Source: Spirogloea muscicola (Eukaryota > Streptophyta > Zygnematophyceae > Spirogloeales > Spirogloeaceae). Taken from it: a stretch of 64,000 nt of DNA. Each line of letters opens with the position of its first letter. Within the stretch, counting starts at the first letter, position 1. The position numbers and the translations under genes are program-made. The notes under the pieces are model-generated. The model made no database searches. It was not told the origin of the DNA and saw only the letters and a list, made by a program, of their open reading frames with translations. Location: positions 172,506 through 236,505 of the forward strand of contig WELB01000044.1 in NCBI GenBank assembly GCA_009602725.1. Reading direction: 5' to 3'. Positions 3,001 through 61,676 of this stretch are shown piece after piece.

Positions 3001-3595
3001 AAGCGGCGGGCTGGCCAATGCCACTGCGGCTTCGTGCCCACCGTGGCTCATCCGGGGCACTGATCGGGTCGGGCTCAAGGAACAGCTCTTCCCTGTGATT
3101 CCTTTTTGTGGGGCGGGCTTTTCACAGCCCTTTCCCCCCCTGGAAACGAAGAAAGGACGCGTCCAGGAGAGGGCGGTGGCTGCGAGAGGCCAGCCCAGAA
3201 AGAAGACCAAGCCAAGCTAAGTGTTGGAAAAGCTTACTTCTTCCACTGTACGGCCATGGTGAGAGGCCAGTCCAAAGGAATGTACAAGGTCTGGTGTATT
3301 CAGTGGACGAGCGCGGCGAGTGTGTCAGCCCAGGGTCCGGCCTGTTGGGAATAAGCTAGCCACGCGCTGTGACCCGCAGCGGACCCCTCAAGCGACGAGC
3401 ATGTGGAGTCTGCTAGACTTGGAGCTTCTCCACTCAACAGCCAGCGCACTTGTACCTTGGCCCTTTCGGCAGTCACCTTGTTATTGTTGACAGCCGCTGA
3501 CAGAGGCTTGTTTTGTCCTCCTTCGCCTCTGCCTGGACAAGCATGCAGAGGACAAGGGATGCTGGGCACACCCAAAATCTTCTGAGGCCTGCTAC
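1..3595. other. Window start: unassigned sequence with possible exons
   Basis: Apart from the candidate exon at 904-1011, no gene can be assembled here. Between 2,685 and 2,725 a 12-bp unit (AAGAGTGCACC-type) is repeated about three times in tandem. At 3,111-3,130 (plus) and 3,178-3,196 (minus) two copies of the dispersed GGGCTG...CAGCCC hairpin repeat face each other, so this segment is an imperfect palindrome. A third, weaker copy lies at about 3,252-3,273 (minus). The 2,880-3,060 part is GC-rich with GGC runs and no convincing coding potential. Confidence 0.5.
904..1011 (+). CDS. Candidate internal exon, protein unknown
   Basis: A 36-codon open segment is bounded by a good acceptor (cttgcag) and a good donor (CAG then gtacatc). 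Read in phase 0 it gives a hydrophobic/polar mix beginning VVGSIRSLLDVLVSHGYALA and including VADVNITSDAGSF, which looks like real protein, while the other two frames are closed. Similar short open pieces lie nearby on the plus strand (about 330-410, 1,780-1,860, 2,030-2,130), so a multi-exon plus-strand gene may run through this end of the window. I considered the nuclear-pore protein NUP210 and could not confirm it. The product is not recognised. Confidence 0.3.
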
Positions 3596-3598
3596 ACC

Positions 3599-4027
3599 AT
3601 GTCTGTTTTGAGAATCTGCTATCTGCTGCTTTTCATGTCACTAGCTCAGGAATGGGCTGTGGGACACCCTGTAGCATCAGCTGCAGCAAGTTCTGCTCTA
3701 GGGGTCATCATTGCACCGGTGCTCAGATTGACAGTGTTGGCAAAGTACCGGCCTAGCACCAACGCTCTTGGCAATTTGGTAGTATACAAAGTGCCTGCAG
3801 CAGTTGGTCATGCTCTTCATGTGATTGCCTATACCAACTCGGCCAGGCTGTGGAAGGTGCTTATTGCTGCCAATGAGCCTTGGATTCGAGAGTACCATGT
3901 ACTCGTTACTTGCCAGTCAAAGAGCCAAAGCTTGGTGCACCATAGACATTTGCCCTGTCAAACCTATTACAGAAATTGCTATGCACGCAGAGAAACAACT
4001 AAAAGCTTCTCATTTGGGCACCATTGA
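3599..4027 (+). CDS. Uncertain 142-codon open frame
   Basis: An open frame with ATG at 3,599 starts with a hydrophobic stretch (ICYLLLFMSLAQEW) that could be a signal peptide, followed by alanine/valine-rich sequence. A second frame over 3,655-3,740 is also open and cysteine-rich, so even the frame is unclear. No family is recognised. It may be an exon of a longer gene, a signal-peptide protein, or chance. It is listed because it is the longest open stretch in an otherwise AT-moderate, non-repetitive part of the window. Confidence 0.2.
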   Translation: MSVLRICYLLLFMSLAQEWAVGHPVASAAASSALGVIIAPVLRLTVLAKYRPSTNALGNLVVYKVPAAVGHALHVIAYTNSARLWKVLIAANEPWIREYHVLVTCQSKSQSLVHHRHLPCQTYYRNCYARRETTKSFSFGHH

Positions 4028-4184
4028 CTTTAATCATGGGCCCCAGACAAGCCCTCAGAAAGACTTCAAGCCTGTGCCAGGTTTCACAAACAATTAGCGC
4101 TATAAGGCAACCTCACAAGTCCCAGAGTCAGGATTGTCTTAAAGTGATGCTACTTGCATAGAGCTGACACTTGACAGCCAGCAT

Positions 4185-4410
4185 TCAACTTCTGACTGCA
4201 AAGTACGTCAAGACAGACCAGTAACATAGACTTAGACTGCTTGCCAGCTTTTCAATGAGTCCCACTTGTTCCTCAAGGGTCTCACCTATTGCTGGCACTG
4301 GCGAAACAACTGCCTGGTGAAATCTGTTGCACACATACTGCTCAAAGGCCTCCCTTCTTGCTTCTGAGGAAATTCTTGCTTGCCCAATCATAAGATTGAG
4401 CATATTTTCT
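4185..4410 (-). CDS. Candidate exon of an unknown protein
   Basis: On the minus strand, after an acceptor-like ctgccag at about 4,420, an open frame reads SIKENMLNLMIGQARIS, then EARREAFEQYVCNRFHQAVV, then ETLEEQVGLIEKLASSLSL. The amphipathic, charged composition is typical of a real alpha-helical protein rather than a chance frame, and no stop occurs until 4,185. Neither the family nor the partner exons are recognised. It could be the last coding exon of a minus-strand gene lying between here and 5.0 kb. Confidence 0.4.
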
Positions 4411-5047
4411 TTGATCGAGGCTGGCAGGTGCATGGAGACTCCGCGTAGTAACAGTAGAGCACAACATTAAGTCGGCCTTTCTGAGCTGCTGAGTAGTAAG
4501 TAATTATGCTCCTTAAAGCTGCAGATAAATAAAAGAGCAAGGGTCAGCTGCATGCAGCATGCTTTTACTGTAATCGACATCACCAATGTCATCTCTATCC
4601 CGCCATCATTATTGATGAAGATGACATTCGTAGATGTACTTTACAATACTTTGTCAGTCTTTCCAGATGATTTTGAATGTTGGTATTCAGAGCAAGTGCT
4701 ACAGCTGCAATGAGAGGTGTGGGGCAAGTACCAATGGCTGCTTGCCAGAGGACAAGCTAGGAATGCAGGTGCCCAGCTTCAGAATTGCCGTCTCATGTAT
4801 GCTGCTGACGCGTTCCTAAGTCAGGACCAACATCCTGTGTATCATAGAAAAGGAAAGGCACTTAGAACCTGGTCTGTCGACCATGATCGGACCAGTTTGG
4901 CTAAAGGCACAACAACTGTCCTCTAGAGTGCTGCATGTTTGGAACCTTGTGACATCGACATCTGCGGAGCCAGAAAAGAGGGATGTGTCACGGGCAGAGA
5001 AAGTGCATTGCTGTTCTATTGACTGCCCACTCCCAGACCTATCTTAC

Positions 5048-5785
5048 GTTCCCATCCGACAGGTTGAGATCCCATATGTCAGTAAGAGCTTGCACTAGCC
5101 TCTTCAGAGCACAACAAGAGATACCAGAGTGGAGGGCCGTTCTACCTTGGATCCAGAGTTCATGTAAGGGCCTCGCTGGACGGCCTGGGAGTTCAGTGGC
5201 TTCTCTACGTCAATGATTGGCTTCTCTTGCCTCGATCTTCCATCACACACAGAAGTATCTGTATCAGCTAAGAGTGCAATGAGGGGGGTGTGAAGTTGAG
5301 TGTAGGTGTGGCGTGTAATACTGCTGAGAGTAGCCAGCTATCTGAATGCCTGACCACCTTGCGTGCAGCAGCAGAAGAGGTGATTCCTGTCCTTTTCTAC
5401 GGCAAGGTTAGCTACTGGGCAGTACGAGCAGCAGGCAGTCAAGCAGTCAGGTGGGCCACTGTTGCCAGTCTGACTGATTTCAGCTTGTACCTAGGGCAAG
5501 CTTTCGAATCTGGAAGTGACTTGGTCTCCTACTCTGAGGAGCCCCTGTTGCTGATGTGCTGCTCGCCCAGCTCTGCCAAGACCTTTGGGCTGGAATTTCT
5601 CACTCACTGTCCCCACAAGGAGCGCTTTCCGCTTGAGTAAATAAGAAGAACAAGACGGGAGCAGCGCCTGCTGGGGCCCGGCAGCTTGGCTTGACTCACC
5701 TGAGCACGAAGGGGAAGACGAGGCCCGCACAGGCGAAAGCGCCGAGGCCGGCGGCCAGGGCGAGATTGGCCCCGCGGCCGGACAT
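5048..5785 (-). CDS. Small single-pass membrane protein, plant-type, unknown function
   Basis: The first exon, 5,785-5,700, begins MSGRGANLALAAGLGAFACA and continues GLVFPFVL, giving one N-terminal membrane segment, and ends at a consensus donor (CAG then gtgagt). A later exon at about 5,226-5,165 encodes KPLNSQAVQRGPYMNSGSK before a gta donor, and another at about 5,095-5,048 encodes DIWDLNLSDGN. From memory, this order (membrane anchor, then a KPLPP.AV.RG.YMNSGS-type motif, then an acidic DxxWDL tail) matches a short uncharacterised plant protein family of roughly 70-90 residues. I recall no proven function. A possible extra exon at 5,589-5,531 (PKVLAELGEQHISNRGSS) would follow in phase after exon 1, but its 3' junction does not fit, so the exon count is uncertain. 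The 3' end is not defined. Confidence 0.5.
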
Positions 5786-6002
5786 GACACCGCGGCAGGG
5801 GGCAACCGCTCCCCACTGATGGAAGCCGGGGACGAGGCGAACCGGCTCGTCGCCGGCAAGCCTGTTGGGCGGAGTTGGTGCCAGGGCTCGTCGCAGGCCT
5901 TCAGGCGCCGGCTTGCTGGGGCGTCGTACTCGCGTGCTTCGTGTGTTGGCTGGACTTGCCTCCCTTTCAAGTACGCGCAACTTCAGGCAGGAGACAAAGG
6001 CG

Positions 6003-6063
6003 CGCGGTGCGCATGAAATTGAAAGGGAGGCCAATTTTGGCCTTATAGATGACCTTTTAACTG
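6003..6063 (-). repeat. Repeat family B, minus orientation
   Basis: Reverse complement of the family-B consensus: a GCCAATTTTGGCC core, GGCCTCCCTTTCAATTTCATG, and a GCGCACCGCGCGCC end. It lies about 220 bp 5' of the start codon of the minus-strand small membrane-protein gene at 5,785, in the same orientation. Confidence 0.7.
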
Positions 6064-6299
6064 GGTAATGAGCTGGCTAAGGGGGACACTAATATCCCCG
6101 AGTGAGCACATGCATATCTGACAAGCTACACTGAGGAGCCAAACCACCACCACGGGAGCCATTAGCTTGGGCTAGTGCACGACCAGCAGGCTGGTGTATC
6201 GCGAGTGCCTGGGAGCGCTGTAGACTCAATTCCGACAGCCGCATTCTTATAGCATTCAACGATGGCTTGCGGGACGCTAGAATACCCTAAGCTACCCGC

Positions 6300-7523
6300 C
6301 CGACTACGTCAGCGGGCATCGACATGCAGTGCCAGGCGATGGAGGAGGGAAGACCACTTCGTTCCGTAGCCGCCGTATATGTCCAAGGCGCATGGGAAGA
6401 AGTGGTCGCCCTGGGGGTGGTCATTGTAGTGCCTCTCCTTCTTCCTCTCCGCATGATGTGTAGCCCAACCTGGCACAGTCAGTGTGGGTACCCCTAGTTG
6501 GAATGCGTCGATGAGAACGACGTCGAGGAGAAGACGAGGCCCACCACTCCGGGGGGTACCACATCCAGGCGCCTGACGTGAGGCCTGCCACGCTTCTGGA
6601 GTACCAGCATGATGCCCGGCAAATCTATGGCCGCATGATAACCTGCCTCGCGCACCAAGCCACACATAGCGTCTCTGAGAAGATTGTGGGAGGCATTACG
6701 TTCACTTCCCTCAAACATCGAAGCATATGAGCTGCCAAAGAGATCTCATCCTCCAAACCATGGCTACATTTATACTGTCGAATGCCAGCCAAACAAAGTG
6801 GAGGGAGGCCGAGATGGTGGTGGACAGCCGTCCGGAAGAGATCGTCGGAGAGCCGGAGGGTTTCGTAGATCGGCAAAGCGTTGAGCCACTCCGACGCCCC
6901 GGAGAGCTGATGGAGTGGAGACGAGAGAGCCCACGCCCATCCTCCTTGAGCAGAGCTTTGAGGTGGCTCATGGCTTGCTCAATGGCTGCGCGTGACAAGC
7001 GAGCTTGAGCCTTCAGGTCAGAGCATCTTGCCCACGCTGCAAATTCGACCTGATCTGCCGCAAGTGATGGGGAAGGAGCGGAGAAGGTTCTGCGAACGTC
7101 AGAGAGGGAGGTTTGAAAGGGCAGGGTCCCATTTGCCACGCCAGCTATTGCTGGTGCCAGTACTGGCTGACCCCTCCTGGTGAAGCGCGTCGAAATTGTG
7201 GAGGCCACTTGGGCCCAACACCCCAGGTGCGCTGCGCGACCCAGGTGAGCCACAGAGCGGCAGCCAAGGCCGCCCTTGCCTATGGGGCAGGGCTGGAGAC
7301 GCCTCCTTCGGCGCTTTGCCCACTTCTGCGCACTAGCTTTTGCCTGAACGGTGTGCTGGCTTAAATGGGCCTCCCTTTCAGTCGATGCACACCGCGCGCC
7401 TTCTCTCGTCGCCAACGATATATACGGCACGTTCCACACCCAGCACCTAGCTGGCTGAGAGATGAAGAAAAAGGCGCGCGGGGCGTATGAAATGAAAAGG
7501 GAGGCCAATTCAAGCCAATACAC
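6300..7523 (-). mobile_element. 3' fragment of a non-LTR retroelement (reverse transcriptase C-terminus), degenerate
   Basis: Minus-strand frames, interrupted by frameshifts, carry the region downstream of a LINE-type reverse transcriptase: a segment ending in SPGASEWLNALPIYETLRL, then LSDDLFRTAVHHHLGLP, then LAAHMLRC, and at the end a KERHYNDHPQGDHFFPCALD-like stretch (about 6,345-6,430). The last part resembles the K-x-KY-x-DHP motif of the better preserved copy at 48.6-49.3 kb, where it follows RADLV...ADVVTT, a pattern compatible with a PD-(D/E)XK nuclease fold. No catalytic reverse-transcriptase core is visible, so the copy is 5'-truncated and dead. Frames shift at least at about 6,710 and 6,490. 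Confidence 0.65.
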
Positions 7524-7541
7524 AGTTCAAGCAGAAAAGAT
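7335..7541. repeat. Family-B foldback element (two copies in inverted orientation)
   Basis: Positions 7,335-7,412 carry the plus-orientation sequence: CTTTTGCCTGAAC, then TGCTGGCTTAAAT, GGCCTCCCTTTCA and CACCGCGCGCCTTCTC. Positions 7,466-7,541 carry its reverse complement with about 80-85% identity by eye. The two arms of about 75 bp are separated by about 55 bp, so the unit is a 207-bp inverted-repeat (MITE-like) element. It sits between the retroelement fragment and the small gene at 7,878. Confidence 0.7.
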
Positions 7542-9600: not shown

Positions 9601-9688
9601 TGGGCTGGCCTGTCACAGCCATCGCGCCCCGTTTGGAAAACCCAATCTATTTTCGTCCGAAGAGGGCGATGCTGTGAAAGGCCAGCCC
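9601..9688. repeat. Hairpin-repeat (family A) pair in inverted orientation
   Basis: GGGCTGGCCTGTCACAGCC at 9,602-9,620 (plus) and GCTGTGAAAGGCCAGCCC at 9,671-9,688 (minus) with matching flanks (ATCGCGCCCC.TTTGGAAAA against TTTTCGTCCGAAGAGGGCGAT) make an 88-bp foldback. Each arm itself holds the GGGCTG/CAGCCC stem. Confidence 0.75.
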
Positions 9689-9745
9689 AAAGTAACGGAC
9701 AGGCAAAGTAGGCAAAAAGCTAAGAGCTTAGAAGAATATCAATCT

Positions 9746-13079: not shown

Positions 13080-13520
13080 GATCTGCACTTGCTGTCTTAG
13101 AGGTTATTGGGCGTAAGCACAGGTCTTTCGCATGCGCATTCCAATATCCTCCAGCGGTCCATGGCCCATGCTTTTTTGCGTGCTGACCATGCTCTAGCTT
13201 CAGCCTCTGGCTTTCGTCAAGGGGACTGCTTGCCGGCGGCTAGTCATTCTGACTTGCGGCTACTAACGAGGAGATTACTGAGCGATTACTCCTACATGAT
13301 CCTTGCTTGGTTCTGTCTTTCAGCGCTTTTCGACCCCTTCGGACCTTGTCATTTCCGGCTGGCTTTTCACAGCCCTCGCAGCTTTAGGAGTGCCTTTTCG
13401 CAATTGAACGTCCACTCGCAGAATTCACGGATAGTACTTCCACCTTATCTTCCTTTTTGCGCCGTCCGGCCCCTCCAGACCTTGTCCAATCTTTTGGGCT
13501 GGCCTCTCACAGCCACCAGT
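13080..13520 (+). mobile_element. Retroelement 3' tail with two hairpin repeats
   Basis: The plus strand at about 13,130-13,285 encodes the same C-terminal segment seen in other copies in this window: an LQRSMAHAFLRADHALASAS-like helix, then ASGFRQGD, then SDLRLLTRRLL, ending at a stop near 13,290. About 70-100 bp later come CGACCCCTTCGGACCTTGTC and the hairpin GGCTGGCTTTTCACAGCC (13,356-13,374), then a second unit with CCCTCCAGACCTTGTCCAA and GGGCTGGCCTCTCACAGCC (13,495-13,514). It is 5'-truncated. Confidence 0.65.
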
Positions 13521-13607
13521 CAGTTTGAAAGCGCCGCAATGTATATTTTCACCATCAACGGCTTCTACTGATACGACTTCGCTTTGAGTAGCCCCAACTC
13601 TGCGCTG

Positions 13608-17715: not shown

Positions 17716-17750
<35 letters not shown>

Positions 17751-27065: not shown

Positions 27066-27520
27066 CGTTTGCCTTAACAGGGCATTGGCTTGACCTGGCC
27101 TCCCAAAACCCTAAATTCCCACGCCTTGCATCTGCGTGCTGGCCGTGCTCTCGCTGCGGCCTCCGGCTTTCGTCAGGGGGATAGTTTACCGGCAGCTAGT
27201 CTGTCGGATGTGAGGCTCCTCACTCGTAACTACTGAGTGGTCCATCCTCCCCCGTTCTGCCATAGCCTCTTCAGGCCCCGCAGTCGCTGCTTAGCTCGTA
27301 GTTTGGCCCCTTCGAACCTTGTCAATTCTTTTCGGGCTGGCTTCTCACAGCCCTTGCCCCCATTGGGAGAGCCACTTCTTCTACATACGCTCCGCGCTCC
27401 TTCACAGGAGCTGCTGTCCACCCTCGACCTCCACTTCAAGCTTCCGCCTGAATCCCTTTCATTTGGCCCTTTCGAACCTTTGTCAATTCTTTTGGGGCTG
27501 GCATTTCACAGCCCTTGCCT
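27066..27520 (+). mobile_element. Retroelement 3' tail with tandem hairpin units
   Basis: A partial family-B sequence (27,066-27,105) abuts a retroelement C-terminus: ALHLRAGRALAAASGFRQG-like coding (27,118-27,180) and SDVRLLTRNY-stop at 27,236. A 3' UTR-like segment follows (TGGTCCATCCTCCCCCGTTC), then two tandem units of about 160 bp, each with CCTTTCGAACCTTGTCAATT and a hairpin at 27,334-27,353 and 27,494-27,513. The sequence 27,118-27,370 is nearly identical to 37,367-37,625, so the two copies are recent. Confidence 0.75.
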
Positions 27521-28145
27521 CCATTGGGAGTGCCACTTCTCCTTTCCAGCTGGAGCCCAGAGAGGGTTCAGCGGCATTCTACAGGACGGTTGCTTGCTGT
27601 TGCAGCTAGCTGACCTTTTGGTCAGACGCTCTGCAAGAGCGACAATCCCGTCACGGACGTATGGAAGTAAGACAACGGACACGTGTCCTCGCCTGTAGCC
27701 GGCCTCGTGCGGCACCTCCCTCGCCACCAGGCTGTCTAGCCTGTGGCTCCGTCATGAACACCTGTATGCATCTGGCTGGCTTTCACAGCCGCTCTTTTAA
27801 TATCAGCAGCCGCTTGAGGATAGGTATATACCACCCGCTGACTGCACAGGGCGGCGAATGCCGTCAATGAGTTCCAATCTGCACCCGTCCGTGTCTGCTT
27901 GAAACAAACCGGGCACTATTATCGACTTACAGGGGGGGACCTTTTTCCTCAATGGGCGAGCCCTTTCGTCTTTTTCTCTCTTCCTCCTTTAAGTGGGAGG
28001 AGCTTTCCTTCCTCAGGGGCACTTCAGGGCGATGCCTAGTGGTGGAAGGCCCCGACAAATATATTCCTTGGGCTGACAACTCGGCGTTTACAACAACTCA
28101 ATAGGTGGTGAGGGTACTGCAGCCCTGACCCGACTTGGCTTTTCC
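27521..28145. other. Intergenic with one hairpin-repeat variant
   Basis: At 27,768-27,815 (plus) a variant, TGCATCTGGCTGGCTTTCAC then AGCCGCTCTTTTAATATCAG, is nearly identical to the minus-strand copy at 37,058-37,105. The remainder shows no gene. Confidence 0.5.
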
Positions 28146-28599: not shown

Positions 28600-29360
28600 A
28601 TGAATGAAACCCCAGTGCCATGGGTGGAGGCTATGTGCTAGCAGGCAATTTGACCAGTCCCACCGATTGGTCAGGAGATGGGCAGATCATCTGGCAATTC
28701 TCAGAGTTGTAACACTGAATCCTTCCTCTGCACCGGCAGTTGCCCTCATAGAGAAGAGAAATGAGCAACATCACCCCGATTTAAGGGTATCTCCTACACG
28801 AGAGGGCGGAAAGACCTCTTCGCAGGTGCTTGCAAGTGGGCAGCCACACAATTAGAGCATACCTCCAAGGGGCCAGAGGTTGCGATTGGCCTACCCAAAA
28901 TCTACATTGAGTTCAGATTCTAAGCCGCCATCTTTTGGGGGGTGCAGGAGTGTGCGAGGGGGGGAGAAGCAGGAGCAGAAGTAGGCCATCGCAACCACGC
29001 AAGCAGCTCCTGCTGTGCTCAGCAGTCCACATCAGCAATTTGACTGCAAAAGGCGAAGGAAGAAGCCTCAGCGAAGCCTGAGGCAGCCTGAGGTAACGGG
29101 GGTGCAAGGCATGAGCTTGCGTTCACCAAATAAACACGGACAGAAACAGATGGTGAGGCTGAACTAGTGAGCTGTGCACGAGTGCGTATGACCGGTGTCA
29201 CTTTGTAATAAGTGCGGCTCTGTTCATTGTTTTTTGGGCTGGGCTCTCACAGCCATCGCTGTACTTTGGAAGTGCAATATCCTTGTTCCGGGCTGGCCAG
29301 TGACGGCCATTGCTCCCTCTACAATTCGCCGTCCTCCTATCTGAGCAGGCGAGCTGAAGT
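28600..29360. other. Intergenic with hairpin repeats
   Basis: Hairpin-family copies in plus orientation lie at 29,236-29,254 (GGGCTGGGCTCTCACAGCC) and 29,290-29,308 (GGGCTGGCCAGTGACGGCC). No coding exon is evident. Confidence 0.45.
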
Positions 29361-36533: not shown

Positions 36534-37110
36534 CCGGAGCCCGCCCTCACTTGGGACGGTCGCCCTTTTCCCTCTGGTTGGACTCGCCGCAGCAGGAAAC
36601 GACCTCCCGAGGCGCAACAAGTCTGGAGACGCCCTCGAATCACAAAGCGAGCTCAATGACAGCGCTCGAAGGTCCTGGCTCCAGCTTGCTCGCCGCGGGG
36701 CCGCGGGCGCAGCTCTGACGGCTTGTAAAGGTGACAGCCGCCTAAAGGTGTCAGCTGGGACCAAGAGGGAAGGCGCCGGACCTGCCGGGGAGGGCGAGGA
36801 GAGGGCCGGCCGTCAAGCTCCAGAGGTGGGCCCGCAGCGAAGCGGCGGCGACGGTGGGCGGCGCAGCGGCGCGGCAGCAGCCATTTGGCGCCGCGGAGCG
36901 TGCCGGCGGCGGCNCGAGCCTGCCGGAGGACCGCCCGGGACGGGCGCCTGGCACGCAATGCTGGGTGGCCCGCCCGGCGCCCGGCGGCGGCGGCAGGAGG
37001 AGCTGGAGGCGGGCCGGAGCTGGGGCTGGGGCTGCAGCTGGAACGAGAGAAAGAATGCGGCTGCTGATATTAAAAGAGCGGCTGTGAAAGCCAGCCAGAT
37101 GCATACAAGA
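36534..37110. promoter_or_regulatory. GC-rich upstream region of the METTL-like gene
   Basis: GC-rich sequence with GGC runs and one N at 36,914. A hairpin variant in minus orientation (GGCTGTGAAAGCCAGCC, 37,079-37,096) ends the region. Open frames here on both strands look like composition effects. Confidence 0.4.
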
Positions 37111-38350
37111 GAGAAGGGCTCGCCCATTGAGGATAGGGGCTGCAAAAAGCCAGCCCAAAAAGGAATGAACAAAGTACGAGAAGGGGCCAGGGGACGCACT
37201 AAGAAAGACAAGCACAAAAAGAAACGAAGCAGCTGCCGAAGCACTCAGTAACCCCTGCTAAGCAGCCTCAGGTCAGAGAAACTTGGCTCCAGGAGGAAGC
37301 GGGTCCCCTGGCCAGAGCCTTCTGCCATCGTATGCGCTTGTCCGTCTCCCTCCAGCGGTCCATGGCCCACGCCTTGCATCTGCGTGCTGGCCGTGCTCTC
37401 GCTGCGGCCTCCGGCTTTCGTCAGGGGATAGTTTTCCGGCAGCTAGTCCGTCGGATGTGAGGCTCCTCACTCGTAACAACTGAGTGGTCCATCCTCCCCC
37501 GTTCTGCCATAGCCTCTTCAGGCCCCGCAGTCGCTGCTTAGCTCGTAGTTTGGCCCTTTCGAACCTTGTCAATTCTTTTCGGGCTGGCTTCTCACAGCCC
37601 TTGCCCTTATTGGGAGAGCCACTTCTTCTGCTAGAGCCAGAAGAAGGGCTCGTCCAGTGAGGACAAGAGCTGGAAAAAGCCAGCCCAGAGAAGGACGAGA
37701 AGGGGCCAGGGGAAGCACTAAGTAAAGAGCACAAAACAAGCACAAAAAAACCAAGCAGCTACGAAGCACTTAGTAACCCCTGCTAAGCAGCCTCAGGTCA
37801 GAGATACTTGGTTTCCTGGAAGCGGGTCCCCTTCTTGTTGTACTTGTTTTTCTTAGCGCTTCCCGGAACTCAGTATCCCTGACCTGAGGCTGCTTAGCAG
37901 GGGTTACTGAGTGCTTCGTAGCTGCTTAGGTTCGTTTTGTGCTCCTTTTTCTTAGCGCTTCCCCTGGCCCCCTTCTCGTACTTTGTTCCTTCTTTTTTGG
38001 GCTAGCTTTTTCAGCCCCTATCCTCAATGGGCGAGCCCTTTCTTCCCTTGGCCAGAGCCAGAGGCAGCAGCGAGGGCTCTGCCGGCACGCAGGTGCAGCG
38101 CGCGGGCCATAGACCTCAGCAGCGAGACGGCCAAGCGCATGCCGTACACCTGCGCTAGCGACCCGGCTGCATGGAAGACCACCGGCTCCCCATGGAAGCG
38201 GCGGACAATGGCGTGACGTGAGAGCTGGTTGAGCAGCTCGAGCCACCGAGCGCCCATCGCCCCGTGCGTATCAAAGGCGAGCGGGAAGAACTCGTCTTCC
38301 CGCGGGTGAGCTGGGTATTTGAGCTCCTTGGCCTGAGCGGCGCAGGCTAC
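37110..38350. mobile_element. Nested retroelement 3' tails in alternating orientation
   Basis: At least five retroelement tail segments abut one another: minus 37,110-37,310, plus 37,320-37,640, minus 37,640-37,830, plus 37,850-38,045 and minus 38,045-38,350. Each has the end of the coding region (SDLRLLTRNY-type or GQGTRFQ...SDLRLLSRGY-type), a short 3' UTR and the hairpin. The last one is longer and encodes ELKYPAHPREDEFFPLAFDT, HGAMGARWLELLNQLSRHAI, and then LAQVYGMRLAVSLLRSMARA. The third and fourth segments are inverted copies of each other, so the DNA can fold back on arms of about 190 bp. All are 5'-truncated. Confidence 0.75.
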
Positions 38351-38599
38351 CGCATACCCAGCCTTGGTGGCACACTGGGCTGGGTGTGAGCGTCAGAGGC
38401 AGCAGCGAGGGCTCGTCCGGCCCGCAGGATTGTGGGCCCCGTCCAGCCTTGCTGCTGTCGACGGAGAAGAAACAGCGCAATCATGTTCATTTGCGCCATC
38501 TGGCCCTTCTACACCTTGTACATTAATCTGCGGCTTCTCATCAGGGTATATTGAGCACCCAGTGGCCAATTTGAGTCGCTGTGTGCTCTAGCGCTTTTC

Positions 38600-41500
38600 T
38601 GTTTTAGGCTGGCCCATCACAGCCATCGATCTCTACTGGGAAGTCTCTCTCTTGTCACTCTCTTGTCTCTCTTATCATTCTTCTTGTACGTTCCTTTGGG
38701 CTGGCCAGAAATGCGTGCCAGAACTGTGGGACGATGCTGAGCTCTTGTACGCCTCCGTCAGAACCACATTAACCAAGGCTCGTGGACCTCCACCAGATTG
38801 TACGCCCACAACGTCTAGGTTGCAACGAAGGGGGCGAGGGCTGTGAGATGCCAGCCCGAATAAGAACGGACAGGGTCCGAAGGGGGCCGAAAAGCGCTAA
38901 CTGAGACAGCACCACGAAGCATGCTTTGTTGTTTAGCCCTACTTAGAGCCGCAAGCCGAGCGAGAGAGAGAGCTCTTCCCAATAAGAGGGGCGATACCTT
39001 GTGAAAGGAGAGAAATGCGGTGCCCATGAAAGAAGGGCCGAACCAGGGTACGTACTGTTTGTAAGAGGGACTAAGGTAACAGAGCGAAACAAAAGGAGAG
39101 GTTAGTTTTCCAGACAGGGCGAAGGCTGCGATGGGCCAGCCCACAAAAGAGTGACAAAATCTGTGAAATGGTGAAGAAAAAGCTTCCAAAGCAAGAAACG
39201 GCTCTTAGAATGTAAGGTAGTGGGTGTGAGTGGCCAGCCCGAAGGCATGGACAAAGACGACAATGTAAGGCAATGGCTGTGAGAGGCCAGCCCGAAGGAA
39301 TGTACGAGGTCTTAAGGGAGCAAGGGCTGCAAAGGAGGGAATAGGCTCTTCCAAAGGGGGCGAGGACTGCCAAGGGCCAGCCCACAGAAAAAGTGACAAG
39401 GCCCAGCTGCGCGACAGCATCCGGACGACCCTCCTCGAGGCGCAGGCTGCCGAGCACGGCCCCTGCTCAGCAAGCTCAACGCTGCTGCGTCGCCTGTCAT
39501 CCTGATGGCGACATTGCCATTCTGGGACCACCACGCTCCTTTTACTGTTGCTCGTTGCGAGCCGCCCACTGATTGAACGACCCCTTTAGAGCCAACTGGA
39601 AACGATGCTTGCACTTTCATATGCTGCCTTCTGCACTTCTCTGAGTAGTCGAGTAGTGCTTGCGAAGAGAAGTGAAGGCCCACCGAGGCGTGCGCGTACA
39701 GCAAGAACAAGAGGCAGCGTCCAGATCGCGGGCTCGGTGAGAAGGCCAGAGGAGAGCAGGCCCTCGGACTGGTGCCCCGTGGTCATCACAGTGAAGGCTT
39801 CGGTTAACCTGGGCGACAAGGGGGGTGCGCAAGCAGCAACGCACGTTGGCAAGGGGGTGGCGTAGCAGGGAAAAAGGGGGCCAGGGCGTGGGCCCCGCTG
39901 CCGAGGCCGCCGGAGACGGACTGGGGGCTGTCCGGGCACGGGTGCTGAGCGGGTACAGTGGGCGCGGTGGTTGGGTGGCGGGGATGCGGGGTGCTGAGGC
40001 GGCCCTCTGCGGCACAGGAGAGAGTAAGCGAGAGGGGGGAAGGCGCGGGTCGCGCATGAGATGAAAGGGTGGCCACCTTTAAGCCAACAGAAGCCATTTT
40101 CGAATACATTGGTAAGGCAAGAGAAGGAGAAGGGGCGCAGTGCGCATGGTATGAAACGGTGGCCAACTGAAGCCTTCTATACTGTCTAGGCAACTGGCTG
40201 TACCGCCATTCGGCCCCTCCCGACTCTGTGCATTCTTTTGGGCTGGCCTCTCCAAGCCACCGGTTCATTCTAAAGCGCTTTTCCTCCTATACTGTTCAGG
40301 CAACTGAAGCGTGTACACTGTTCAGGCAAGGCGCGCAGGCGGGTATGCGCTGCGGCGGAGTGAGAGGAGGCGCTCGCGCGGACGTGCGGGGGCTGTCCGC
40401 CCTGGCCGCTTCGGCGGCTCGGGGAGCAGTGGGGCATGGCAGGGGTTTCAGCGGGAGGCAGATGGAGGGCGGGCCTGGCAGCGCGCTCGTGGGGCCGCGC
40501 CGCCGGCGGGAGTGGGGGGCTGTGGGGGCGGCACGCCGGTACAAAAAGGGGCGACGGGGTGCCAGCCCCAGTCAGGGCGCCAGCCGTGGCCGGTGTAGCG
40601 GGCCGGGGCCCGGGGGTCCAGCAGGCCAGCGGCGACGCGGCCGGGCGGGCCCCTAGGGGACGGCCGCGCCACGGCGGGGCGGGCGGGGGCCGGGCCACTG
40701 ACAACACCGGGCTGGGCCGCGCGGCGCGTCAGCCCCGGCAACATCCTGCAGGCCCTTTTTACTTTGGCCTTCGGACATTGTCCATTCTGTTCTGGGCTGG
40801 CTTTGTTAGCCCCTCTTTTGCCCAGTGGGCAAGCAATTTCCTTCTGAGCAAGCAATTTCCTTCTCGGGTTGGCCTCTGGCTTTCTTTCTTGCGGGTTGGC
40901 CAATCACAGCCGGCGCGCTCTACTGGAAGAGTCGTTTGGCAGCCATTGCCCTCTCCTGACGAAACAACAGCGCTGCCGAATCGACTGGTGGCTCCTGAGG
41001 AGCCCTCTTCTTCACACCTTGCCCATAGTACTCTGGAATGTCCTTTCTCAAGAAAAGGTTAGCCTTTCCAAGAGCTTCCAGTAGAGGGCGGCGGCTGTGA
41101 GAAGCCAGCCCCAAAATAAGAATGAACAAATTTCGAGGGGCCAGAGAGCCAGAAAATGGACAATGTCCAAAGCCAAAGAAAGAAGAAGTGGCTCTCCCAA
41201 TGGGGGCAAGGGCTGTGAGAAGCGAGGGCCCAAAGGGAATGAAGTACGTCCAAAAGGCCCAGGAGACAAAGCACATGGAAGAACTATTCGTGACTTCTGC
41301 GCGTGGACGCTCCATGACCGCTAGTCAACCAATGCAGATCGGAGCAAATAGAGGGCGAGGGCTGTGACAAAATCTTGAAGAGCTCTTCTAAAGGTGGCGA
41401 GGGCTGTGAAAGGCAAGCCCCAACAGAAACTCCTTCACGACGTGAGCTCTTCCAAGGGGGCGAAAGAAGGCGGGGGCTGTGAAAAGCCAGCCCAGAAAGA
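38600..41500. repeat. Cluster of hairpin (family A) repeats
   Basis: Plus copies at about 38,606, 40,240, 40,793 and 40,893. Minus copies at about 38,842, 39,124, 39,222, 39,277, 39,365, 41,091, 41,207, 41,358, 41,402 and 41,473. Many come in units of 60-180 bp containing a (C/G)CAATT or AATGGACAATGTCC spacer, a GGGGCCAAA-type segment and an AGAGCTCTTCCAAAGGGGGC segment. The 41.09-41.50 kb part is a tandem minus-orientation run ending about 660 bp before the AP2 gene start. No gene of 300 bp or more is convincing inside. A minus-strand frame at 39,600-39,860 is open in three frames and is left unassigned. Confidence 0.75.
40044..40330 (-). repeat. Repeat family B, two copies plus partial ends, minus orientation
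   Basis: Copies at 40,044-40,095 and 40,135-40,195 (GCGCATG...ATGAAA.GGTGGCCA...AAGCC, ending TACTGTCTAGGCAA), followed by two isolated starts of the element (TACTGTTCAGGCAACTGAAG at about 40,290 and TACACTGTTCAGGCAA at about 40,313). No well-supported gene follows to the left. Confidence 0.65.
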
Positions 41501-42163
41501 AGTAATAAAGTCCCCAAGGGCCATCGGACTCAAAAGCCCCCGACATCATACTATGGAAGGGGGTCGGGAGGGCGGAGCAGCAGCCACGCGCGGGGATGCC
41601 CGCTGCCCGCCCGCGTTCGCACTGGTGCGAACCGATGGCCCCGCGGGAGGCGTACGGCAGGGCATGGGGGGGGGGTGCTTGTCCCGGGGGGCGGGCAGAG
41701 AAGGGTGGACAGCCCCAGGCTGTCCGCACAACGCGGATTGCGGCCCGCAGATGGCGGGCTGCTGGGAGCAGGGGGCCGGGAAGCCCCGGCCGGATCCCGC
41801 CCAGGGCGCCGTCTGCTGGCCGGGCCGCCGCGTGGCGCCACGTCGCGGGAACACCGCAGATGGTGGGGGGGCGCCCCCACCCCCCCTGGCGGCCCAGCCA
41901 ACAGTAGGCGCCACCCTTCCCAACCCCGGCCCTGCCGTGGTCTCCTCCCCCCCACAGCCTTCCCCGCCGCCCCCTCGCCTTCTCCATCCCCCCACATCCT
42001 TCCCCAGCGCCCCGCCGCCCCCTCGCCTGCCCGCCTCCCCGCTCTCGCTTCCCCGCTACAGCCACAGCGCCGGAGAAGCGCCGCTCATCTTCGCCGCGAG
42101 GAGCTCGTCGCTGCGGCGCCGCTGGTGGGCGCCCGAGACTCGAGCTGGGCGGCGCGGCGCCGT

Positions 42164-48245: not shown

Positions 48246-48250
48246 GAGAA

Positions 48251-49543
48251 AGCAAGCGCGGCCAGATTAACTGGTGGCTGAGAAGGGCTCGCCCATTGAG
48301 GATAGGGGCTGGAAAAAGCCAGCCCAGAAAAGAATGTACGAAGGACGAGAAGGGGCCACAGGGGAAGTACGAAGAACAACAAGCACAGAAAAGAAGCGAA
48401 GCTAAGCAGCCTCAGGTCAGAGAGACTGGGTTTCTGGAAGCGGGTCCCCTGGCCAGAGCCAGAGGCAGCAGCGAAAAGCGCGCCCATAGAAAAGAGGGGC
48501 TGGCCAAGCCAGCCCAAAAACGAATGGACAATGTCCAAAGCCAAAGCAAGAGGAGCCGGAGAAAGGACTACACTACAACATACTGCAGAACACAGAAACG
48601 ATGCAGAGGAAAGCTCAGTACCCACGAGTGAGCAACATCAGGTCTGAGTAGCTCGCTGCAGGGAAAGAGGCGCTCCGCCGAGACCCAGAGGCGGCGGCCA
48701 TAGCACGGCCTGCGCGTGTATGGACGGCGTGGGCAAGGGAGCGTTGAAGCGATACGGCCAGGCGCATGCGGAAGACTTGTGCGAGCGACCCGGCGGCGTT
48801 GAAGCCGGGCATCGCCCCTGGCAGACCCGGCCGCCGGTCAATGGCCTGGCGAGCAAGCCGCTGAATGAGATCCAGCCAGCGGCTGCCGAAAGCCCCGTGT
48901 ACATCCATCGCCAGGGCCGCTAATTCATCCCCCACCGGGTGATCAGCGTATTTTCGCTCCTTGCCGCGGGCCGCCTGGCCGACCGCGTGCCCTGCAAACG
49001 ACGCCGATCTGGTGGGGTTGGCGGAGTCGATGCAGTCTGTTGTCACCACATCAGCGATGATGCGGGGACCGCCGCCGGGAGGGATGGCGACCAGGTCAGC
49101 GCGTCGCGTATGGGGCTGGCCGTCTGCGCCCAGCTGAATGGGCATGATTGAGGACTTCTCTACCGCAACCTTGAAGCCCGCCTCCGAAAACACCCCCTGC
49201 ATACCGTCGCGCAGGAGGTCATGGGAAGCGGTCCGCTCCCCCCCGTGGGCGCAACGGAGCATGTGGGCGGCCAGCTCGGCAGGATCATCGTGTCGGGCAC
49301 CGCGCTCGCATTGAGGGACTCCCACGAGGCAGGGGGGAAGGAGGCCCAAGAGGGCTCTGCCTGCACGCAGGTGCAGCGCGCGGGCCATAGACCTCTGCAG
49401 CGAGACGGCCAAGCGCATGCGGTACACCCGCGCTAGCGACCCTGCTGCATGGGAGTCCACCGGCTCCCCATGGAAGCGGCGGGCAATGGCGTGACGAGAG
49501 AGCTGGTTGGTCCCAGCCACCAGTTAATCTGGCCGCGCTTGCT
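48251..49543 (-). mobile_element. Retroelement fragments bounded by a 30-bp inverted repeat
   Basis: The 30-bp sequence starting AGCAAGCGCGGCCAGATTAA occurs at 48,251-48,280 and, reverse-complemented and identical, at 49,514-49,543. Inside, minus strand, lie a hairpin-bearing tail (48,285-48,475), another hairpin (48,495-48,513), and then a 301-codon open frame (49,520-48,615). That frame fuses a terminal segment (NQLSRHAIARRFHGEPV, AAGSLARVYRMRLAVSLQRS) to a longer piece of the same protein: AELAAHMLRCAHGGERTASH, RRADLVAIPPGGGPRIIADV followed by VTTD, KERKYADHPVGDELAALAMD, and then the terminal segment again (AAGSLAQVFRMRLAVSLQRS), ending SDLMLLTRGY-stop. D..ADVVTT..K..KY is compatible with a PD-(D/E)XK nuclease-like domain downstream of a reverse transcriptase. 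The reverse transcriptase itself is missing. Confidence 0.7.
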
Positions 49544-49642
49544 CTCTTTCAAACGGTTGGAGTGTGTATCGAACGATGGAGCGGGCCTGAGTGGCCGAGT
49601 ACAAAAGGGGGGCCAGGCGTCCCCCTCGCCGCCGGAGCCGCC

Positions 49643-55311: not shown

Positions 55312-56075
55312 AAGTTGCTACTGCGGAGCAAGTCGCTCGCTCGCCGGCGCGTCTAAAGTACATTCAGAAGCAGCATTCTCTCGGTGGATTGGTAGGGAAG
55401 ACTCTATATCACTGATGCACTGCGGGGCAGACCAGAGGAGGCAGAAGTGCTGCGAGCTTGCCACCGCACCGCGGCGGCAAGGCGGCAGCCGTCGGGAGGT
55501 CTGCAATGGGGCAAGCGAGCCGCGCGCACCATGAGGCGCCGGCGACTGCGGCACGGCAGGACTGAAGCCTGCCTGCTGCTGGTGCTGAAGGGAGTCGATG
55601 CTGGTCTAGCGTGTTATAGCATGGAAGCCGCAGGATGCGACGCTATGGAGCCGAAGAAAGGCAACCGAACATCATCGATACACCAGCATGTTTCAAGAGG
55701 CCCAAGGTGGGGGGGTGACGATTGTCGACGGTGGTTGCGGAAGGCCAGCCCAACAAGCGAAGAAGGCTAGTTGGGCTCCCTTGAACGAGGACAGGTCCAC
55801 AGCGGCGAGTGGTCGTTGGTCAGTGGGCGACGGAGCGAGACAGGGGAGCGGACGGGAGACCGCTTCACCGAGGCACCGCCCCAGTAGCCAAGCGCCTGCC
55901 CCACCTCCCTCGCGCCCGGGCCCCCGCCGCGGGGCCTGGCGTGCGCGTCGCCGCCGCGGCCGCTGCTGGCGGGCTCGGCGCCGCTGGAGGACCAGCCTCC
56001 TCGCCTCGTCAGGGCTCGCGGGACCGGCGGGGGGATCGAGAGCGCCTCCTCGCGGCTGCGGCTGCGGCTGCCACG
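55312..56075. promoter_or_regulatory. Spacer of head-to-head RAD51C and beta-adaptin genes
   Basis: 764 bp. A minus-orientation hairpin variant (GGTTGCGGAAGGCCAGCCC, 55,735-55,753) lies 430 bp 5' of RAD51C. The segment 55,900-56,075 is GC-rich and contains the beta-adaptin 5' UTR. Open frames in it are unrecognised. Confidence 0.45.
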
Positions 56076-59000: not shown

Positions 59001-61204
59001 GTTGTTGGAGAGTTTCCTAGAGGGCTTTCCAGAAGAGACCGCACAAGTGCAACTCCAATTGCTCACTGCTGCTGTTAAGCTCTTCCTGAAAAAACCGACT
59101 GAAGGGCCACAGCAGATGATACAGGTAACACAGGTCAAACCCATAAGGACAGCCCATCAGACTGAAGCTTGTCTATTGTAAGAGTACGTTCTTTAGACCG
59201 CCACACAGTACCTCACAAAGCCAGGCTATTGAGAAATCAATGCTGGAACATGTTGTAGGTCGTCCTGAACAACGCCACACAGGAGACAGACAACCCCGAT
59301 CTGCGTGACCGCGCTTTCATTTATTGGCGACTGCTGTCAACAGATCCAGAGGTAGGGAGTACACTCGGTCGCCCACGCTCTTGCAAATGTCATTGCTGCA
59401 GAGTGCAGAATGCCTCCAGCGCTTGGTCGTGAATTGCTTTCAGAGTAGTCACAACGTTCTCATCACAAGTTCATTCTTCAAATTTCAGCATTTCTTAGCT
59501 GCAGGCCCCGTAATGTGATGTTTACTTTATAATTCTTCAGATGGGTAGAAGCTGAGTGGTTGACTTCGCTGACTATTGTGCTACACAGGCTGCAAAGGAT
59601 GTTGTGTTGGCAGAAAAGCCTATTATTAGCGATGAGATTAATGACTTCGAACCCTCATTGTTGGATCTGCTTTTGGCCAACATTGCGACCTTGGCGTCCG
59701 TTTATCACAAGCCCCCCGAAGCATTCGTGTCTCGCGTTCCTGCCTCTGCACAGACCACTCCCGCAGATGCTGAGGCAGACGACCTCTACACTGACGGTCA
59801 GCTTGGTATCAGCGGTGCCGAAGACTCCTCGGCTCCTGTGACAGCATCATCGCTCGATGGTGTAGGGACGAGATCAGTTGCGGCATCAGCTGCTCCTCCC
59901 GTGGCACCGACCAAGACCTTGCCACCACTGCAGCAAGCCCCCCAAGCTGCAGGTCCAGATTTACTGGGAGATTTGGTGGGGCTCGACTCCAATGGCACAG
60001 TGCCTGGGAACGCGCCACCAGCTGCTGAGTAAGGAGGACCCCTGCATGTATGGCTGCACATGATTCTCAAAGAGTAAAGCATCTGCGAGCTCCCCAATCA
60101 ACATTCTTGAACTGAAAATAGTGACCTCTACCTGCAGGGTCGCATTGCCTGTTCTACTGGCTGCCTCAGCAGGGCAGGGGCTGCAAATCAGTGGTACATT
60201 GACAAGACAAAATGCAGCCGTCTTCTACAACCTCCGATTCGACAACAGCAGTCCGGTGCCACTTGATGGCTTCATGATCCAGTTCAACAAGAACACATTC
60301 GGCATAGCACCTGCTGCCCCCCTTCAGGTCGATTTCGCTCTTTTTCATCACACTGGCCCAAGTTTGCCGTCTGAGTTGCAACCTCTTTACATCCAATTCT
60401 CACCTGTGCAGGTCCCACTTTTACAGCCAGGTGGATCAGCCTCAGTCCTGCTCCCGCTGGCACTGTTCCAGAACTTATCTCCTCCTCCTCCTACTTCAGT
60501 CCTTCAGGTGGCCATTAAAAACAATCAGCAGCCTGTTTGGTACTTCACAGACTCTGTTCCTCTGCACGTTTTCTTTTCTGAAGAAGGCCGAGTGGAACGA
60601 GCTGCTTTCTTGGAGGTGAGCCTACATTTGGGAGCACAGTGGCTGCTACAGGTCCACATGCACTTTACTGTCTGGCCTTGTCAATGCCACAGACAAGTGT
60701 ACCTGCAGCTGAATGCCGCATATTCCTCCTACAGACGTGGAAATCGTTACCAGATGCCAATGAGGTTACGAGAGAATTCTCGGAGAGTATCATCAGCAAT
60801 CTCGATGTCACTCTTGAAAGGCTTGCTTCCAACAACGTCTTCTTTGTTGCTAAGCGTCGTCTGAAAGACACAAACAAGGTCAGCTGGCACTTGGCACCTC
60901 GCAGCAAGCTCAATATTGCTTGACGATAGGAACATCGAACGTTGGGCACAAAGTGCTGTTGACATCCTCCCTTGACATGTAGCGGTGGCAGACATGCAGC
61001 AACCTCCTGACATGCATTGTTACTGGTTATGGTGGACGCATGCAGGATGCTATCTATACTTCGGTGAAACTAGTGTCAAATGTGCCCCTTTTGGTGGAGT
61101 TCACTTTCGCTTCTGGCATCCCTGGCGTGACTTGTGCCGTCAAGACGCCTTCAGTAGAGTACACGCCACTCTTCTTCGAGAGTGTTGAGAAATTGCTGCA
61201 ATGA
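56076..61204 (+). CDS. Beta-adaptin of AP-1/AP-2 clathrin adaptor complexes
   Basis: The large beta subunit that bridges cargo adaptors and clathrin at the trans-Golgi and plasma membrane; plants share beta subunits between AP-1 and AP-2. Sixteen exons with consistent phases give 914 residues: 56,076-56,162; 56,409-56,606; 56,728-56,841; 56,977-57,227; 57,341-57,476; 57,636-57,815; 57,984-58,076; 58,284-58,495; 58,680-58,743; 58,945-59,124; 59,259-59,351; 59,589-60,028; 60,138-60,327; 60,412-60,615; 60,735-60,878; 61,046-61,204. N-terminus [20 protein letters not shown] is the family's. The HEAT/armadillo trunk is intact ([40 protein letters not shown]). The hinge (exon 12) is Ala/Pro/Asp-rich with [10 protein letters not shown]. 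The appendage has [19 protein letters not shown] and [11 protein letters not shown]. The C-terminus [13 protein letters not shown] matches the plant and animal ends. Exons in the AT-rich body are typical; only exon 1 is in a GC-rich island. Confidence 0.96.
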
Positions 61205-61640
61205 CAACTCTGTTCCCACTTTTGGCAGCTCACAAGCTCCTGAAGAGCAAGTGAAAATAGAAATTTCATGCTGGCAGTATGCCTCACCATCCATGACGCT
61301 GGACTGATAATGTTGGCTTGACATGTGTCTAAATTGCAAGCCCTCCGCCAATTCCCAACTTCAAGCTCTGTAGGGCGGCCAATGAAAGGTGGCAAGCAGC
61401 CAGACAAGTAGATGTTTTGCTACTTAAGGTCAAATAGTGAGCATGCAGTCAAGATGCAGGAGAGCCACTCCTGCACAGCCCCTCCCCTGCCATTGGAGAC
61501 GGCAGACTTATCACCAAGGCTAGGCTGTAGTGCAGCGAGAAGCGAAGTGCAAGTTGTCCGTCTGGGGGCAGCATTTGTAGGCCAGCAAATGGAGCTTTAC
61601 TGCTTCTCACAGCGATTGCCTTACATTGAGAGAGCTATTT
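61205..61640. other. Intergenic, no feature seen
   Basis: Presumed 3' UTR of beta-adaptin and spacer; no recognisable exon or repeat up to the hairpin copy at 61,657. Confidence 0.45.
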
Positions 61641-61656
61641 CTATTTCTTCTCGTTC

Positions 61657-61676
61657 GGGCTTGGCCTTTCACAGCC
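61657..61676 (+). repeat. Hairpin repeat (family A), plus copy
   Basis: GGGCTTGGCCTTTCACAGCC followed by CTCGCCCCCTTTCCATG, the usual 3' context of the family. Confidence 0.65.

What the first reader, a model, noticed from the sequence alone, without database searches (positions are those of the whole stretch)
3111..61676. About 35 dispersed copies of a short stem-loop, GGGCTG-N7/8-CAGCCC, in both orientations
The sequence shows the same core, typically TTTTGGGCTGGCCTCTCACAGCC followed by (A/C)TCGCCCCC.TTTGGAAGAGC, at for example 3,111, 9,602, 13,356, 13,495, 27,334, 27,494, 29,236, 37,581, 40,240 and 61,657 (plus), and 9,671, 38,842, 39,277, 41,091, 41,473, 48,306 and 55,735 (minus). The two halves GGGCTG and CAGCCC are self-complementary, with a loop of 7-8 bases. 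Loop bases vary (GCCTCTCA, GCTTTTCA, GCATTTCA, GAAAAAGC) while the stem is kept or changed on both sides, which suggests that the structure matters. I know no named plant repeat with this core, so it may be undescribed.
Basis: seen in the sequence. Interest (0 to 1): 0.7.

Follow-up and report, generated by a model that had tools for sequence, protein, structure and literature searches.

The report
Hairpin tails of truncated LINE retrotransposons
The repeated short hairpin is the 3' tail of a family of jumping genes (LINE retrotransposons) in what looks like a green plant or algal genome; most copies are short, truncated insertions, and the hairpin is probably the handle by which the element's copying enzyme grips its own RNA.

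Summary
Genome-wide, GGGCTG-N8-CAGCC occurs 14,046+14,107 times against 38+27 for the reversed pattern.

It is not a stand-alone RNA family but the 3' end of LINE retrotransposons: an ORF with a reverse transcriptase and a restriction-like-endonuclease-type C-terminus. In 16 of 39 ORF ends in held DNA the hairpin starts 86-106 nt after the last sense codon. Copies share a 3' end about 25-39 nt past the stem; 5' ends are ragged. Of ten insertions examined, five, one only 50 nt long, have an empty counterpart elsewhere and 5-9 nt duplications.

The tail is the best-conserved part between LINE lineages (0.67; rest of 3'UTR 0.49), also without the hairpin (0.61). That suggests recognition by the reverse transcriptase, as in stringent-type LINEs; this step is inferred. 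No shared SINE head was found. Known mechanism, apparently unnamed family.

The parts
48615..49391 (-). C-terminal part of the LINE ORF (linker and restriction-like-endonuclease-type region), stop codon at 48615-48617
   Evidence: 84% identity to residues 1156-1413 of the L041 ORF; 135 scored genome matches to the 301-aa frame, its own and some split ones included; ends LMLLTRGY-stop
48472..48614 (-). 3'UTR of that LINE with the tail hairpin GGGCTGGC-TTG-GCCAGCCC at 48515-48497 (lineage B)
   Evidence: (stem starts 103 nt after the last sense codon)
27118..27382 (+). Lineage A LINE 3' end: ORF end (stop about 27234-27236, read by eye), 3'UTR and tail
   Evidence: 97% identical to 37366-37629; tail hits
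37366..37629 (+). Lineage A LINE 3' end, second copy; the match between the two copies ends at ...CACTTCTTCT
37104..37319 (-). Lineage C LINE 3' end with ORF end, 3'UTR and tail
37833..38043 (+). Lineage C insertion of 211 nt (ORF end, stop, 3'UTR, tail), flanked by TCCCCT / TCCCTT
   Evidence: the joined flanks matched only themselves, so the empty site rests (window near 48401)
48281..48352 (-). Lineage C tail copy with hairpin GGGCTGG-CTTTTT-CCAGCCC
27462..27543 (+). Short lineage A tail copy
13466..13536 (+). Tail copy with ...CACAGCCACCAGTCA... downstream (lineage D-like)
13329..13398 (+). Tail copy
29217..29284 (+). Tail copy
39103..39404 (-). Cluster of four tail copies in one orientation
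41070..41521 (-). Cluster of four tail copies in one orientation
37640..37701 (-). Tail copy lying tail-to-tail with the lineage A copy that ends at 37629
40209..40287 (+). Tail copy
40767..40844 (+). Tail copy
38816..38888 (-). Tail copy
38602..38641 (+). Short tail copy
   Evidence: E 7e-4; E 0.04
2739..2809 (-). Tail copy by the nhmmer profile
   Evidence: E 2.5e-6; not listed or 77
3150..3213 (-). Tail copy; degenerate neighbours at 3099-3143 (+) and 3259-3293 (-)
9653..9701 (-). Tail copy, with a further copy at 9587-9643 (+)
49500..49549 (+). Short tail copy
   Evidence: (E 3.8e-4)
61654..61688 (+). Short degenerate tail copy
   Evidence: E 0.012; E 4.3e-5
55722..55757 (-). Short degenerate tail copy
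   Evidence: (E 3.1e-4), not
38093..38386 (-). Relic of the LINE ORF (residues 1280-1379)

Best explanation
Each 'stem-loop' is the 3'-terminal tail of a non-LTR retrotransposon (LINE). The LINE has one long ORF with two zinc-finger-like Cys/His motifs, a reverse transcriptase and a C-terminal restriction-like-endonuclease-type region, followed by a 3'UTR of about 115-150 nt that ends ...CTTCT or similar. At least four lineages (A-D) with different 3'UTRs share the tail: TGTCCATTC or TGTTCATTC (TGTCAATTC in A), a T-rich run, the hairpin GGGCTGG(C)...(G)CCAGCCC (six pairs in A), about 30 nt more. Shown: tail position after the ORF, common 3' end, ragged 5' end, target-site duplications in some insertions, extra conservation of the tail. 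Inferred: the tail RNA is bound by the element's own protein to start target-primed reverse transcription at a nick; synthesis usually stops early, leaving inserts of about 50-200 nt. New insertions often land beside older tails, which gives clusters in both orientations.
For: Full ORF beside the tail: L041 has a 1,413-aa open frame with RVT_1 (E 2.4e-13), TGA at 4838, stem 94 nt after the last sense codon. Of 39 ORF ends in held loci, 27 have a stem-loop within 220 nt, 16 of them at 86-106 nt; two of the 27 are antisense artefacts. Common 3' end, ragged 5' end: 227 copies, upstream match 0 to about 690 nt; the downstream match ends at 25-39 nt in 112 of 227. Insertions whose joined flanks align to an empty site at another locus (80-87% identity) with a duplication: L008:2571-2620, 50 nt, exact 9-bp TCGCCCTGC, empty in L033; L012:140-242, 103 nt, exact 6-bp CTTTTT, empty in L015; and, less exact, L003:2441-2636, 196 nt including ORF end and stop, 8 nt, empty in L015; L042:4069-4180, 112 nt, 5 nt, empty in the window; L030:836-901, 66 nt, 6 nt, empty in L014. 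Constraint: between-lineage identity 0.673 in the tail, 0.488 in the rest of the 3'UTR (shuffled 0.454), 0.565 in the last 90 nt of ORF; tail > UTR in 53 of 55 pairs, > ORF in 47. Leaving out the hairpin, by which the tails were located, the flanks are 0.610 and exceed the UTR in 50 of 55. Clustering: of 55 neighbours under 60 nt apart, same-strand 38, tail-to-tail 14, head-to-head 3. Endonuclease motifs: KX2KY in 8 of 9 aligned copies, the two aspartates and the upstream H in 9 of 9. Recognition of 3' tails by LINE proteins is shown for other LINEs (PMC4176376, abstract and introduction).
Against: Covariation, expected if the helix itself is selected, is not above shuffles in 57 copies and weak in 140 on an alignment fitted to the structure. 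The outer helix pairs in only 73-75% of cells and, by eye, is poor in lineage D. After the stem the tail is less conserved (0.540, shuffled 0.457). The downstream match ends before 25 nt in 72 of 227 copies and beyond 39 in 43, most of these probably the library's own copies. Endonuclease identity rests on motifs: no Pfam match, nothing in PDB sequences better than E 0.88, CCHC spacing CX1CX12HX3C instead of CX2-3CX7-8HX4C, 'GXW' is GSRW, AD for PD; structure prediction never ran. One search gave 38 candidate empty sites, from which I chose ten: one had no duplication (L030:451-645), one was an artefact (L013), and three (L017, L027, window) had no joined-flank alignment to another site. 12 of 39 ORF ends show no tail within 220 nt; at least three belong to a divergent LINE with another 3'UTR, and one (L017:9478) has a degenerate hairpin that the pattern missed.
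Confidence: 0.93

Rival explanations
1. The short copies are a separate SINE family, with its own polymerase III head, that has borrowed the LINE tail.
For: Short copies dominate: 128 of 227 have at most 45 nt of LINE-like sequence upstream of the stem. LINE-SINE tail sharing is common, also in green algae (PMC3747384 passages). Lineages A and D show a modest pile-up of 5' ends near 30 nt upstream.
Against: Of 56 short copies without another copy close upstream, 48 have heads unlike any other head and the largest group is 2; random segments of the same loci, not cleared of tail copies, give groups of up to 5. Read by eye, the five duplicated inserts hold LINE 3'-end sequence and no separate head. 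ARAGORN finds no tRNA gene in the window.
Confidence: 0.08
2. An independent, dispersed structured RNA or cis-regulatory element kept by host selection.
For: High copy number, good complementarity, 94% of inner-stem cells paired.
Against: Position at the 3' end of LINE ORFs, common 3' boundary, 5' truncation and target-site duplications. Covariation not established. No Rfam match in the window.
Confidence: 0.03
3. A MITE-like DNA transposon whose hairpin is its pair of terminal inverted repeats.
For: Palindromic core, short length, target-site duplications.
Against: The hairpin is internal, not terminal: about 30 nt follow it to the common 3' end, and in longer copies the sequence continues upstream into a LINE ORF. 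5' ends are ragged.
Confidence: 0.01

Closest known systems
Restriction-like-endonuclease (RLE) LINEs: R2, R4/Dong, NeSL, HERO, CRE, Utopia
   Same: Single ORF with zinc-finger-like motifs before the RT (by eye), RT, C-terminal knuckle-like motif and RLE-type motifs including KX2KY
   Different: CCHC spacing deviates; clade not assigned; insertions are dispersed rather than at one gene site; host looks like a green plant or alga
Stringent-type LINEs with a 3' stem-loop tail (UnaL2, ZfL2-1/-2; R2 requires its 3'UTR)
   Same: Conserved 3'-terminal hairpin; tail more conserved than the rest of the 3'UTR
   Different: Those LINEs were tested by assays (PMC4176376, abstract and introduction read); here recognition is inferred
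Plant L1 lineage and maize/sorghum SINEs with a conserved 3'-end hairpin (PMC3747384, passages read)
   Same: Green-plant LINEs with a conserved 3'-terminal hairpin of about 50 nt
   Different: Those are L1-clade with SINE partners and reported compensatory changes; here an RLE-type LINE, no SINE head found, compensatory changes not established
Dualen/RandI LINEs of Chlamydomonas (PMC3747384 and PMC8226300, passages read)
   Same: Green-algal LINEs; recalled, not from a call, to carry an RLE-like domain as well as an apurinic-type endonuclease
   Different: No apurinic-endonuclease domain is found by Pfam in the 1,413-aa ORF

Membership tests
Non-LTR retrotransposon (LINE) | Reverse transcriptase ORF | tested here: met
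   Pfam RVT_1 E 2.4e-13, residues 687-913, over the curated cut-off
Non-LTR retrotransposon (LINE) | Common 3' end with variable 5' truncation | tested here: met
   227 copies: 3' match ends 25-39 nt past the stem in 112, 5' extents 0 to about 690 nt
Non-LTR retrotransposon (LINE) | Target-site duplications of variable length | tested here: met
   5 of 10 examined insertions (chosen from 38 candidates) have an empty site at another locus and 5-9 nt duplications, two of them exact
Non-LTR retrotransposon (LINE) | No long terminal repeats | not tested
   The 5' end of a full-length copy was not defined
RLE LINE (R2/R4/NeSL/HERO/CRE/Utopia group) | KX2KY and PD-(D/E) catalytic motifs C-terminal to the RT | tested here: met
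   KX2KY in 8 of 9 copies; RRADLV and the aspartate of RII(T/A)DVV in 9 of 9; motifs as described in PMC5678591 passages; AD instead of PD
RLE LINE (R2/R4/NeSL/HERO/CRE/Utopia group) | CCHC knuckle CX2-3CX7-8HX4C before the endonuclease | tested here: inconclusive
   A C-C-H-C motif is present but spaced CX1CX12HX3C
RLE LINE (R2/R4/NeSL/HERO/CRE/Utopia group) | Restriction-endonuclease-like fold | not tested
Stringent-type LINE (3'-tail recognition) | Conserved 3'-terminal stem-loop shared between lineages | tested here: met
   Tail identity 0.673 against 0.488 for the rest of the 3'UTR, 53 of 55 pairs; without the hairpin 0.610, 50 of 55
Stringent-type LINE (3'-tail recognition) | Retrotransposition depends on the tail | not testable with these tools
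   Needs an assay
SINE | Common non-LINE head, usually with polymerase III boxes | tested here: not met
   48 of 56 isolated short copies have unique heads, largest group 2
Structured RNA under covariation | Compensatory changes above controls | tested here: inconclusive
   Not above shuffles in 57 copies; 1-23 of 500 shuffles reach the observed values in 140 copies, on an alignment fitted to the structure

The most novel reading that the evidence does not exclude
An R2-like RLE LINE group in a green plant or alga, in which several lineages keep one common two-helix tail (outer TGTCCAT/ATGGGCG-type pairing around the GGGCTGGC hairpin). Most of its insertions are little more than the tail, and older tails serve as preferred landing sites, so the genome fills with about 0.6 tail copies per kb (of the order of 90,000 if that density holds), arranged in tail-into-tail clusters.
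Probability: 0.3. Interest if true: 0.5.

Novelty: new member of a known kind. Interest (0 to 1): 0.35.

Why it matters
It turns an apparently new dispersed hairpin into a well-defined LINE tail. The genome should then be annotated for an RLE-type LINE whose tail copies cover about 4% of the sampled DNA (5,518 of 140,576 bases), and it is a natural catalogue of tail variants for studying how such an enzyme recognises its RNA. It also warns that abundance plus a good hairpin does not imply a host RNA gene.

Tried and rejected
Organellar or tRNA explanation: no tRNA, no Rfam match, and the window is one stretch of a 153-Mb assembly. tRNA-derived SINE by eye (GGTTCGA on the reverse strand): dropped. 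MITE: dropped on ragged 5' ends. Consensus folding of the first alignment A1 gave no structure, I think because gap columns split the stem; on A2 it gave five inner-stem pairs and no outer helix; folding by lineage showed an outer helix in B and C. A first test for shared heads was flawed by overlapping copies and by negative slices at locus edges and was replaced. The RVT_1 search of the genome did not bring the LINE first: of its four loci the one I read (L037) looks like a Ty3/gypsy type, so the LINE was reached through the window's own ORF. Eight paper searches listed nothing that names this element; five papers were opened (PMC4176376 abstract and introduction; PMC4640811, PMC3747384, PMC5678591 and PMC8226300 passages). 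Repbase and Dfam were not available.
Full report
WHAT WAS CHECKED. The window is part of a 153.1-Mb assembly in 471 contigs (G000:C44:172506-236505). The repeat is there: all 17 coordinates in the finding are hit by a sequence-only model (41 matches at E<=0.05; three of the 17 were among its 57 training copies); a model with structure gives 28 and an earlier nhmmer search listed 37 at E<0.01 before its output was cut. Exact GGGCTGN8CAGCC occurs 14,046+14,107 times in the genome against 38+27 for the reversed pattern; with a 20-nt spacer it occurs only 136+149 times against 32+24. In the window plus eight 10-kb stretches taken without regard to the repeat (140,576 non-N bases; five mostly-N stretches left out) a tail profile finds 84 copies, 0.6 per kb; the eight stretches alone have 55 in 76,579. 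The reversed DNA of all held loci gives none. The hits cover 3.9% of that DNA.

WHERE IT SITS. Long matches around the repeat run upstream into an open reading frame. The window's frame at 48615-49520 (minus) has 135 scored matches in the genome, its own and some split ones included, many at over 80% identity. One, L041, lies in a 1,413-aa open frame with a reverse transcriptase domain (Pfam RVT_1, E 2.4e-13) and two zinc-finger-like Cys/His motifs before it, read by eye. The first 20 or so codons of that frame lie in another tail copy (L041:603-659), so the true start is further in. I searched the held loci with this ORF. Of 39 places where the match reaches the end of the ORF, 27 have a stem-loop within 220 nt downstream, 16 of them starting 86-106 nt after the last sense codon. 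Two of the 27 are antisense coincidences. The loci were partly chosen by similarity to the window's own copy, so they are not independent.

HOW THE COPIES WERE MADE. Four 3'UTR lineages (A-D) share the tail. Over 227 copies, the match upstream of the stem stops anywhere from 0 to about 690 nt (median 32 by best match). Downstream it ends at 25-39 nt in 112, before 25 in 72 and later in 43, most of the last probably being the library's own copies. These are BLAST boundaries and blur with divergence. The pattern is that of 5' truncation from a common 3' end. I then looked for insertions whose flanks are joined elsewhere: 38 candidates, ten chosen for a closer look. Five of the ten show an empty site at another locus (80-87% identity) with a duplication of 5-9 nt: inserts of 50, 66, 103, 112 and 196 nt, the duplication exact in the 50-nt (9 bp) and 103-nt (6 bp) ones. 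The 196-nt one carries the ORF end, stop codon, 3'UTR and tail. One insertion had no duplication, three lacked a joined-flank alignment to another site, and one was an artefact. Copies cluster: of 55 neighbours under 60 nt apart, 38 are in the same orientation, 14 tail-to-tail and 3 head-to-head; in the window 8 such neighbours are seen against a random mean of 1.5. In 81 of the 227 copies with a recognisable ...CTT end the next five bases are 90% pyrimidine, falling to background after ten; part of this is the element's own end.

WHY THE HAIRPIN IS THERE. I compared twelve hand-picked source copies from five lineages (55 between-lineage pairs). The tail is 0.673 identical on average; the 3'UTR between stop and tail is 0.488, hardly above shuffled sequence (0.454); the last 90 nt of the ORF are 0.565. 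The tails were located by their hairpin, which favours them, so I repeated the count without it: the 22 nt before the stem are 0.699 (shuffled 0.467), the 28 nt after it 0.540 (shuffled 0.457), together 0.610, above the UTR in 50 of 55 pairs. So the tail is specially conserved in the elements that move. The simplest reason is that the element's protein must recognise it to start reverse transcription, as shown for stringent-type LINEs (PMC4176376, abstract and introduction read). This step is inference. Folding by lineage shows the inner hairpin enclosed by a second helix in lineages B and C (TGTCCAT with ATGGGCG; TGTTCATT with AATGGGCG); lineage A pairs in a shifted register and lineage D poorly (my reading of the sequences), and the joint fold of all lineages shows no outer helix. 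Formal covariation tests are negative (57 copies) or weak (140 distinct copies on an alignment fitted to the structure: 1-23 of 500 shuffles reach the observed values; the +3 slide gives nearly the same score). I do not claim compensatory evolution.

WHAT KIND OF LINE. The C-terminus has the KX2KY motif in 8 of 9 copies and in all nine the two aspartates and the upstream histidine described for RLE LINEs (PMC5678591 passages). Its C-C-H-C spacing and the 'GXW' site deviate; Pfam has no match and PDB sequences give nothing better than E 0.88. Structure prediction could not be run. I call it RLE-type with moderate confidence and assign no clade. In the passages I read, green-algal LINE/SINE tail pairs are of the L1 and RandI/Dualen kinds (PMC3747384); Dualen is also noted in PMC8226300.

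SINE OR LINE DEBRIS. Of 131 short copies, 69 were set aside because another copy lies just upstream and 6 for lack of sequence. Of the remaining 56, 48 have heads unlike any other and the largest group is 2; random segments of the same loci, not cleared of tail copies, form groups of up to 5. I therefore read the short copies as truncated LINEs, not as a SINE family.

VERDICT. Observation confirmed; interpretation partly supported. It is ordinary in kind (a LINE 3' tail) and probably a new, unnamed family, notable for its very short insertions and its density. About 90,000 copies genome-wide is an extrapolation of 0.6 per kb, not a count.

Noticed in passing
window 5990-6480 (-) and 6092-7286 (-); L017 near 5466-6007; L022 near 3652-4107: A second, divergent LINE family (about 36-57% identity to the L041 ORF) whose ORF end is followed by a different repeated 3'UTR (TAGTGTCCCCCTTAG...TTGGCCTCCCTTTCAATTTCATGCGCACC) without the hairpin tail.
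   Followed up: partly
window 27763-27813 (+) and 37057-37107 (-); L010 near 5214: A 51-nt element (TGTATGCATCTGGCTGGCTTTCACAGCCGC...), identical in both window copies, with a related GGCTG...CAGCC hairpin; in L010 a similar one follows another LINE ORF end at about +57.
   Followed up: partly
window 23847-24193: A separate dispersed repeat of about 340 bp with up to 14 overlapping matches in the held DNA (the longest at 72-80% identity).
   Followed up: no
L037-L040 (G000:C33, C170, C235): Reverse transcriptase matches in long open frames (1,172-1,237 aa); L037, the only one read, looks like a Ty3/gypsy-type LTR retrotransposon (protease, RT, RNase H and integrase-like stretches, by eye).
   Followed up: no
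window 41394-44036 (+): An 880-aa open frame with an AP2 domain (residues 403-453); its 5' end overlaps LINE tail copies on the minus strand (41377-41427 and 41444-41521).
   Followed up: no
L041 603-659 (+): A tail copy lies immediately upstream of a long LINE ORF, head-to-tail, as if the LINE had inserted at an older tail.
   Followed up: no
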